Source of the DNA: Gammaproteobacteria bacterium 45_16_T64
Lineage (GTDB): Bacteria; Pseudomonadota; Gammaproteobacteria; Pseudomonadales; Ketobacteraceae
Length of the DNA stretch: 32,377 bases
Reading direction: 5' to 3'
Assembly: GCA_002162955.1 (NCBI GenBank)
Contig: MABD01000030.1
Coordinates: 285,935-318,311, forward strand
Both the position numbers and the translations under genes were made by a program. Below are positions 1 to 1,818 of the stretch, piece after piece. The notes below the pieces were generated by a model that did no database searches, was not told the origin of the DNA, and worked only from the letters and a program-made list of their open reading frames with translations. Each line of letters starts with the position of its first letter. The first letter of the stretch is position 1.

Positions 1-462
1 TAGTATTTTTCTTAACCCCGAGGTCAATGATAAAAGCGAATCGTGGCTTAGCGCCCTCATGTTTTTTTTCACGATAATGGCGCGCTGTGTATTGCCCTTT
101 GGAAATACCACTCGCTTGTCTATGTCAGTGTTTCGCCGCTGTATGTGGCCGAATAATTGAAGTAGATTTCGCGTTGGAATCTTATCTGCTATCGATAAGA
201 ATTCATCTATGATCATGGCTTGTGCATCATCACTTTTTTCTATGCCTGTTTTTTGTAGTAAGCGCTGTAGTCGGGTTTCTTGTTTGGGTTGGCTTAGCCG
301 TAATAAGTGATCGAGTTTACGCCCGAATTCTCCTGGGCGGGTTCTTAATAACCGAATGGCGCCCGTAATATCCTTGGTGTTAAGCGCGTATTCAATTCGC
401 CCATAAAAGCTCTCTAATGTTTGATTGTTTCTGGCCATTTTTAGCAATGGAATACACTTTTT
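1..462 (-). pseudogene. Continuation of the helical protein in the +1 frame, cut by the window edge
   Basis: From base 462 down to base 1 the minus strand is open for 154 codons in the frame +1 to the preceding ORF. It reads KKCIPLLKMARNN, then a segment with RLLRTRPGEFGRKLDHLLRL, then LLQLFGHIQRRN and RVVFPKGN. The composition is that of a real helical protein, and the frame overlaps the end of the upstream ORF exactly at a homopolymer A6. It is most simply the C-terminal part of the same gene, separated by a one-base insertion. That could be a sequencing error, a real mutation, or transcriptional slippage. A -1 ribosomal shift at this site reaches a stop within six codons and cannot produce the fusion. 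The gene continues beyond the window. Confidence 0.75.
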
Positions 463-1297
463 TGGAGTAGTCTCCGACGTGTAAGTTGTGAAATAGTCGT
501 ACCCATTTGTTGCGATGACGGCCGATATCTTCTTCGTTAATGACTCGTTCCAACTGAAGGCTGAGGTTCTTGCGTAATTGGCGCGGCAATGAAATAAACG
601 TTGTGTTTGTGGCTAGTGAAATATCTCCTTCTGATAAGTAAGTAGCGATGCGTAAGATATCGGTAGCACTTTTTACCAAAGGGCTGATGTCTTGTGATTG
701 CGCCAACATAATTGCAGCGACTACACATTTGTTCTCAGCAAAAGGGATGACTTCAGGAAAGATCCGTTGATCTTTAGGCAGGTTCAACATAAACCACTCA
801 AGAATTTTCTTATCAGTGTCTGACAGCGAGTCGTTAGAGGCTAATAGTGCGGTAAATATTCCCTTTACTTGGTTGTCAGTGGTGAGTGCTATTTCTTGAA
901 ATTTTGTGGCTTCAAAAGCATAGTGGCGTGGAAGCTTGTCGGTGTCGGGTAGCCATTGGCCTAGGGACCAGTAGTGGGTGATGGCATTTAGATACAGTTC
1001 CATGTCAGATATATCGATAACTTGTCGAGGGAAGTTTGGGTACATGGGGGTGTAGTTGATGTGCGCCCCTTTACGTTGTCGTAACGTAGTTATTAATTCT
1101 TGGGCGAATAAGGTGAGGTTGTTATTACTCAACTGCTTGGTGGCAGTGAGTAATGTTTCAGACATGATGTATCCCAACTGCATGAGTTCGGCGTTTAGCG
1201 TCAATGCAGCAGCAAGGTTATCTACTGTGGAATCTAATGGTGTTGTGTTGACTACAACACCATCTAACTTGCTGAGCGTAATGGTCATTTTATTCAT
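392..1297 (-). CDS. Uncharacterised helical protein, N-terminal part ending at a frameshift
   Basis: A 301-aa reading frame with no signal peptide or membrane segment, rich in predicted alpha helix (my reading). I do not recognise a named domain. The coding sense continues past the stop: near residue 277, at an A6 run (plus-strand T6 at 458-463), the +1 frame is open to the window edge and carries clear protein-like sequence. The last 24 or so residues of this frame (after GDYSKK) are therefore probably not native. Dropping one A from the run would join the two frames. The gene begins about 80 nt downstream of the Y-RNA-like element on the same strand, so it is a candidate partner of that RNA. 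Ro60 is itself made of helical repeats plus a vWA domain, but I see no clear TROVE signature here. Confidence 0.7.
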   Translation of the reverse strand: MNKMTITLSKLDGVVVNTTPLDSTVDNLAAALTLNAELMQLGYIMSETLLTATKQLSNNNLTLFAQELITTLRQRKGAHINYTPMYPNFPRQVIDISDMELYLNAITHYWSLGQWLPDTDKLPRHYAFEATKFQEIALTTDNQVKGIFTALLASNDSLSDTDKKILEWFMLNLPKDQRIFPEVIPFAENKCVVAAIMLAQSQDISPLVKSATDILRIATYLSEGDISLATNTTFISLPRQLRKNLSLQLERVINEEDIGRHRNKWVRLFHNLHVGDYSKKVYSIAKNGQKQSNIRELLWAN

Positions 1298-1379
1298 GGT
1301 TATTCTCTACTGGTAAATATAAGTGAGTGGCAGCGCTAATTTTCAATTGGAATGAGTTAGAAGGAAGCGGCTGCCATAG

Positions 1380-1525
1380 CCTATAAGGTGAGGGGAGTAG
1401 AAAATCTAATTTATGCTAGTGCGCTACCAACTGCGCCACCGGCACAGTAGCACCGGGCTGGACTCGAACCAGCGCCCCCTAGCTCCAGAAAAATAGAAGG
1501 AAGATTTTCTATAGCCTCGCCTAGG
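1380..1525 (-). ncRNA. yrlA: YrlA-like Y RNA with a circularly permuted tRNA-like module
   Basis: Read on the minus strand, the 3' half of a tRNA comes first and the 5' half second. The parts are: anticodon-stem 3' strand GCTAG (1483-1479), variable loop GGGGC, T-arm GCTGG-TTCGAGT-CCAGC (1473-1457), acceptor strand CCGGTGC (1456-1450), a TACT cap, acceptor strand GTGCCGG (1445-1439), T8 G9, D-arm GCGC-AGTTGGTA-GCGC (1436-1421), A26, and anticodon-stem strand CTAGC (1419-1415). All stems pair; the acceptor has two wobbles (U2-G71, G3-U70). The tRNA tertiary partners are present (U8-A14, G15-C48, G18/G19 with T55/C56). There is no anticodon loop. Instead the ends continue into a bulged helix: TAGAAAATCT/AGATTTTCTA (1511-1502 with 1407-1398), GGCGAGG/CCTCACC with one C-A mismatch (1521-1515 with 1393-1387), and CCTA/TAGG. 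A capped acceptor stem with the anticodon arm replaced by a long stem is the known design of bacterial Y RNAs bound by Ro60/Rsr. True transcript ends are unknown. Confidence 0.8.
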
Positions 1526-1818
1526 GTATCGCTTAATTCGTGCCAGTTTTGTGTTGTACTTTTTAGATTAGTCTAAGCATTTGATATATAAGTATATTGT
1601 CTGTATGTGATTGGCAGTGCTTATTTGATCGGATGAGGATAAAGTATCGAATAAGATAGAAAATATTATATATGGATAGTATGTTTCTGGATTGTTGGGC
1701 TGTCCTTTGACGGTGGTAGCAGTATTACTTGCTGAATTGTTGAGCAAAAGGTCTACACTGGTGAAGATATTACCCGTGAGTAGTGGGTAATCTTGCGTCG
1801 TTGTCAGCGAGGTGTGCC
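1526..1818. other. Intergenic region between the Y RNA and the solute-binding gene
   Basis: About 290 bases without a credible gene. The stretch is AT-rich near 1580-1680. It must contain the promoter of the minus-strand Y RNA and that of the plus-strand gene starting at 1819. On the minus strand TATACT (within the plus-strand sequence around 1590-1600) is a possible -10 hexamer, but I see no convincing -35. Minus-strand ORFs overlapping this area have low-complexity, shadow-like composition. Confidence 0.4.

What the first reader, a model, noticed from the sequence alone, without database searches (positions are those of the whole stretch)
1380..1525. Y RNA built as a circularly permuted tRNA
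The minus strand carries every tRNA body element in rotated order (T-arm, capped acceptor, D-arm), with a 5-bp anticodon stem but no anticodon loop. The ends instead form a helix of 10, 7 and 4 bp broken by internal loops and a C-A mismatch. This is the YrlA Y-RNA design. Established: YrlA RNAs mimic tRNAs and bind Ro60/Rsr, which can tether PNPase. Unusual here: the tRNA mimic is extremely complete (all canonical tertiary pairs), and it is not next to a recognisable rsr or rtcBA.
Basis: partly seen in the sequence, partly recalled or inferred. Interest (0 to 1): 0.85.

Follow-up and report, generated by a model that had tools for sequence, protein, structure and literature searches.

The report
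New Y-RNA-like partner of Ro-like protein
The sequence encodes a small RNA that wears a rearranged tRNA on a newly recognised stem, and that stem is found beside one uncharacterised family of proteins in many kinds of bacteria, which suggests a second kind of Ro/Y-RNA machine linked to RNA repair.

Summary
In detail: the minus strand carries a complete circularly permuted tRNA body (21 of 21 pairs). Rfam YrlA scores it at half its cut-off (34.9 against 69 bits), and no TROVE/Rsr gene was found in the genome. The tRNA body sits on a stem that no Rfam family was called for: GG-CUAU-[8 bp]-UUCCUUCU...-[8 bp]-5 nt-CC. A second RNA with this stem but no tRNA lies directly downstream (1318-1385), then a gene related to NCBIfam NF041916 (MXAN_6230/SCO0854). 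The stem RNA flanks that gene in 39 of 40 loci and in 8 of 8 held-out plasmid-collection loci (of 30 records). In 149 genomes of a Paenibacillus order, 52 have both, 0 the gene only, 2 the RNA only. The predicted protein is a helical repeat plus TerD; behind TerD, three Ro60 structures are its longest well-fitting matches, at middling Z. A sigma-54-type site ends 10 nt before the RNA. Best reading: a Y-RNA-like RNA of a divergent Ro-like RNP in RNA repair. Transcription and binding are untested.

The parts
1388..1520 (-). RNA 1: Y-RNA-like RNA, about 133 nt, new stem carrying a circularly permuted tRNA
1390..1393 (-). outer helix 3' strand CCUC, pairs with GAGG 1515-1518
1515..1518 (-). outer helix 5' strand GAGG, followed by the conserved CUAU internal loop (1514-1511)
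1503..1510 (-). 8-bp helix 5' strand AGAAAATC (pairs with 1399-1406)
1399..1406 (-). 8-bp helix 3' strand GATTTTCT
1495..1502 (-). pyrimidine motif UUCCUUCU, invariant in the 32-row alignment A3
1457..1473 (-). T arm
1439..1456 (-). acceptor stem closed by UACU
1421..1436 (-). D arm
1479..1483 (-). anticodon-stem 3' strand (pairs with 1415-1419)
1415..1419 (-). anticodon-stem 5' strand
1318..1385 (-). RNA 2: same stem, short apical loop, no tRNA module
   Evidence: model R1 48.3 bits, E 5.7e-12
1531..1545 (-). sigma-54-type promoter TGGCACG-AATT-AAGC, 10 nt before RNA 1
   Evidence: 9 of 11 consensus letters; 1 of 2000 mononucleotide shuffles of the 92-nt stretch as good
392..1297 (-). first open piece (301 aa) of the gene related to MXAN_6230/SCO0854; the frame breaks near 431-462 and the gene continues beyond the window start
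   Evidence: NF041916 E 3e-33; separate tblastn pieces

Best explanation
RNA 1 and RNA 2 are small RNAs made from one sigma-54-dependent transcript that reads on into a gene for a Ro60-like protein with a TerD domain (relative of the MXAN_6230/SCO0854 family). The protein binds the shared stem (GG-CUAU / 8 bp / UUCCUUCU / 5 nt / CC), as Ro60 binds the base of Y RNAs. RNA 2 is the plain form; RNA 1 also displays a folded tRNA body without an anticodon, which recruits or decoys a tRNA-recognising factor (PNPase, a tRNA-modifying or a tRNA-cutting enzyme). Expression is switched on by RtcR when tRNAs are damaged. Shown by computation: the RNA structure and its covariation, the gene-RNA linkage, the promoter match and the predicted TerD fold. 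Inferred: separate small RNAs, binding, a Ro60-like body, RtcR control and the tRNA-related role.
Confidence: 0.64

Rival explanations
1. Cis-acting control element: the stem is a protein-binding operator in the gene's own mRNA, used for autoregulation or mRNA stability, and the tRNA body is an accessory that attracts a tRNA-recognising factor to the mRNA.
For: The 5' motif is on the gene strand in 62 of 62 cases and near the gene in 61; no hits listed away from the gene in 26 genomes.
Against: The RNA lies only downstream of the gene in 13 of 39 loci, only upstream in 24 and on both sides in 2 (counted); tandem copies with different apical modules occur; the sigma-54 start predicted from the site coincides with the 5' end of RNA 1; one genome has a strong RNA hit without a detected gene (G565).
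Confidence: 0.2
2. Genuine YrlA RNA whose Rsr gene was missed or lost.
For: Permuted tRNA module as in YrlA; RF02553 E 3.6e-6 on the short stretch.
Against: 34.9 against 69 bits; no TROVE in G000 or G003, nor in 20 of the 26 genomes searched; in the 6 that have TROVE, the R1 hits lie on other contigs (several are drafts).
Confidence: 0.06
3. A working circularly permuted tRNA gene, or remains of tandem tRNA genes.
For: Complete tRNA body in permuted order. The other two YrlA-like hits in this genome are tandem tRNA genes.
Against: No anticodon loop, a 4-nt cap instead of a CCA end plus spacer, ARAGORN finds nothing, and the module recurs on the same stem in distant bacteria.
Confidence: 0.02

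Closest known systems
YrlA bacterial Y RNA (Rfam RF02553) with Rsr and PNPase
   Same: Permuted tRNA body on a stem made by the RNA ends; a sister RNA nearby; beside the gene of a (possibly) Ro60-like protein; some relatives beside rtcB or near rtcR.
   Different: Other conserved stem motifs, below the YrlA cut-off, no TROVE protein found.
Ro60/Rsr (TROVE, PF05731)
   Same: Predicted helical-repeat body that aligns over 307-309 residues with three solved Ro60 entries.
   Different: No detectable sequence homology; a TerD domain, where Ro60 has a vWA domain (recalled).
MXAN_6230/SCO0854 family RING domain protein (NCBIfam NF041916)
   Same: Only NCBIfam family matched at E 0.001 by seven proteins of this set, P0002 with E 3.8e-111; an annotated member (L095, 1142.6 bits) also has the RNA.
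   Different: P0002 scores 372.7 against a cut-off of 600; searches of the library found no paper that names the family.
Salmonella rsr-yrlBA-rtcBA operon under RtcR
   Same: A Y-RNA pair plus a Ro-like gene behind a sigma-54-type site.
   Different: In the window's genome RtcR and its RtcB neighbour lie on another contig (C24).

Membership tests
YrlA (RF02553) | Permuted T arm - acceptor - D arm module | tested here: met
   21 of 21 pairs
YrlA (RF02553) | Score at or above the gathering threshold | tested here: not met
   34.9 against 69 bits; nothing at gathering in the window
YrlA (RF02553) | TROVE/Rsr partner in the genome | tested here: not met
   0 matches in G000 (97% complete) and in G003 (91% complete)
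YrlA (RF02553) | Binds Rsr and PNPase | not testable with these tools
   needs biochemistry
Ro60/TROVE protein | PF05731 match or profile homology | tested here: not met
Ro60/TROVE protein | Ro60 fold | tested here: inconclusive
MXAN_6230/SCO0854 (NF041916) | Curated score of 600 | tested here: not met
   P0002 372.7 bits, window piece P0001 115 bits; no other NCBIfam family at E 0.001
TerD domain | TerD fold in the C-terminal part | tested here: met
tRNA gene | Anticodon loop and tRNA gene call | tested here: not met
New stem RNA family (this report) | GG-CUAU / 8 bp / UUCCUUCU ... 5 nt / CC beside an NF041916-related gene | tested here: met
   RNA 2 by model. RNA 1 by motif and pairing only: R1, built on short forms, does not list RNA 1 of the window at E 1

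The most novel reading that the evidence does not exclude
Bacteria have a second, widespread Ro/Y-RNA system: a Ro60-like ring with a TerD domain in place of vWA, each gene with its own dedicated RNAs of a new family, some of which display a permuted tRNA, wired in part of the bacteria into RtcR/RtcB RNA repair.
Probability: 0.55. Interest if true: 0.92.

Novelty: new variant of a known kind. Interest (0 to 1): 0.87.

Why it matters
It gives an uncharacterised, widely annotated protein family a dedicated RNA and a testable mechanism, may extend the Ro/Y-RNA principle beyond TROVE proteins, and shows a tRNA mimic attached to a new stem. It also offers a direct test of what the tRNA part of Y RNAs is for, since RNAs with and without it occur side by side.

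Tried and rejected
Rejected: of the relatives' BLAST hits (22 of 145 genomes, the own included), only G003 is a full homologue; I looked at twelve hit loci, and the other eleven are ordinary tRNA genes (nine) or short chance matches (L020, L028). The other two YrlA-like hits in the own genome are tandem tRNAs. An operon with the RtcB about 9 kb away (C35:277167) was dropped: a DEAD-box helicase gene, a CBS-domain gene and a GGDEF gene lie between. A conserved neighbour gene was sought in 147 ORFs of 26 loci: no Pfam family matches more than 3 of them (first 25 of 177 families shown). Sigma-54 sites: 3 of 13 regions upstream of an RNA fit; of 13 further regions upstream of genes only Variovorax fits well. 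A possible site near the own rtcR was not pursued. PDB sequence search with P0002: nothing. In L051 the Rfam tRNA model gives a match over its cut-off that spans two neighbouring elements. Papers: searches for SCO0854/MXAN_6230, TerD/noncoding RNA/Y RNA/tellurite, RtcR+TerD, RtcR/sigma54/Y RNA/TROVE (first 20 of 79 listed), TerD+Ro60 and permuted tRNA/Y RNA listed nothing on this RNA that I could see; the library lacks most subscription papers, and Burroughs & Aravind 2016 and the Wolin-group papers on YrlA structure were not read.

Rows dropped: protein alignment A2 holds 26 of 40 loci; L078, L081 and L084 (stops inside the match), L074 and ten close Paenibacillus or Lachnospiraceae copies were left out. 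RNA alignment A3 holds 32 short elements of 27 loci; its rows were chosen by a script that requires pairing, so its pair counts lean towards the structure. L075's genome is not held, so 26 of 27 handles were searched. L048's contig begins inside the gene and no RNA was found on its downstream side. Of 30 plasmid-collection records 8 were fetched; the two Vibrio loci are near copies.

Full report
What is there. The minus strand of 1388-1520 folds as a stem that carries a complete tRNA body in rotated order: anticodon-stem 3' strand, variable loop, T arm, acceptor stem capped by UACU, U8-G9, D arm, anticodon-stem 5' strand; 21 of 21 pairs form. Letters for the usual tertiary contacts are in place (read from the sequence; the contacts themselves recalled). 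ARAGORN sees no tRNA. Shuffled windows almost never give such a module. The minimum-energy fold has z -2.43, with 4 of 200 shuffles as good.

Not YrlA by the tests available. Rfam RF02553 matches at 34.9 bits, half its gathering score of 69. Two other hits of that model in the genome are tandem tRNA genes, so the model is not specific at this level. No TROVE protein is found in the 97%-complete genome.

The nearest relative gave the key. Among 145 genomes, the own included, one other full homologue exists, G003, 81% identical over 140 bases; its acceptor and D stems differ and still pair. In both genomes a second hairpin with the same CTTCCTTCTA motif follows, and then a gene. The gene's only NCBIfam match at E 0.001 is NF041916, MXAN_6230/SCO0854 family, below that family's cut-off. 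It is one open frame of 729 aa in G003 and interrupted twice in the window's genome. The family is rare nearby: 2 of 321 genomes of the class matched NF041916 at 1e-10.

The RNA goes with the gene. Searching the genome collection with the protein gave 40 loci, by record title from Paenibacillus, Lachnospiraceae, Bacteroidales, Planctomycetota, cyanobacteria, Zooshikella and others (two peptide patterns were used, so this is a subset). A script found the same stem beside the gene in 37 of 40, and in the window; a covariance model raised that to 39 of 40; the exception, L048, starts inside the gene. All 62 occurrences of the 5' motif are on the gene strand and 61 lie near the gene. The model is built from 32 rows of 27 loci, so those match by construction; of the other 13 loci 12 match, several being close Paenibacillus copies. 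A tblastn search of the plasmid collection gave 30 records; I fetched eight (Niallia, Variovorax, four Streptomyces, two Vibrio), and all eight have the RNA next to the gene or one small gene away. In 149 genomes of the order that holds a Paenibacillus, the gene occurs in 52 and the RNA in 54, and all 52 gene-bearing genomes have the RNA; G565 has a strong RNA hit without a detected gene and G577 a borderline one (Fisher p 2.9e-38, without regard to relatedness). Four extra RNA copies each precede a second gene copy; a fifth second copy, in G607, has no RNA called.

Structure of the RNA. Outer helix ending GG/CC, internal loop CUAU against usually 5 nt, an 8-bp helix closed by a C-G that is invariant in A3, then UUCCUUCU and, on the far side, an AG just before the helix closes. 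Variants exist: L050 and several Streptomyces read CCAU for CUAU. Covariation is strong, with the selection caveat given under Tried and rejected; the control does not depend on it. No Rfam family was called for the stem: at gathering in the window and in 12 loci, and at loose E-values in stretches of the window, L051 and L053, where YrlA matches concern the tRNA-bearing elements. The apical module varies: a short loop in most, a permuted tRNA in seven RNAs (window, G003, two in L051, L066, L068, L072), and a T arm without the rest of a tRNA in L066:2970-3054, L068:4894-4976 and L049:3813. Nine of 60 distinct elements carry a T-arm hairpin by the strict test, which misses one of the two L051 modules. 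RNA 1 in the window is placed in the family by motif and pairing; the model R1, built on short forms, does not list it at E 1 and gives the other permuted forms 14.6-19.9 bits or nothing.

Regulation and pathway. A sigma-54-type site ends exactly 10 nt before RNA 1 in the window, in G003, and before the first RNA in Zooshikella; it was seen in 3 of 13 tested regions, and three other RtcR-bearing genomes lack it. In Variovorax the gene has a perfect consensus site, and rtcR lies in the divergent cluster with three small genes between. In L072 the order is rtcB, RNA, gene, permuted-tRNA RNA, all one way. The window's genome has RtcR beside RtcB on another contig. In Salmonella the RtcR-regulated operon holds Rsr, Y RNAs and rtcBA (PMC7790460, passages) and is activated by tRNA fragments (PMC8394870, passages); the same passages describe Y RNA tethering Rsr to PNPase. 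That RtcR works with sigma-54 is from the abstract start in a search listing (PMC9879122).

Verdict. The evidence supports a new Y-RNA-like RNA family tied to a TerD-bearing, probably Ro60-like protein. Binding, processing and function remain to be tested. After checking against the calls, the confidence in the best explanation was lowered slightly (0.66 to 0.64), because rtcR in Variovorax is near, not next to, the gene and two other rows tie with Ro60 in Z.

Noticed in passing
L066:2970-3054, L068:4894-4976, L049:3813-3944: RNAs of the same stem motif whose apical part is only a T-arm hairpin, possibly minimal tRNA mimics.
   Followed up: partly
L092 and L093 (Vibrio), about 3 kb after the gene: An annotated RNA ligase family protein lies near the SCO0854-related gene, on the other strand.
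   Followed up: no
G000 contigs C24, C35, C48, C57: The window's genome has five RtcB matches, probably four genes, and two RtcR matches.
   Followed up: no
window 431-462 and beyond the window start: The SCO0854-related gene is broken in two places in this genome: pseudogene or assembly errors.
   Followed up: partly
G565:C1:2159685-2159754: A strong copy of the RNA (E 4e-13) in a genome where no gene was detected.
   Followed up: no
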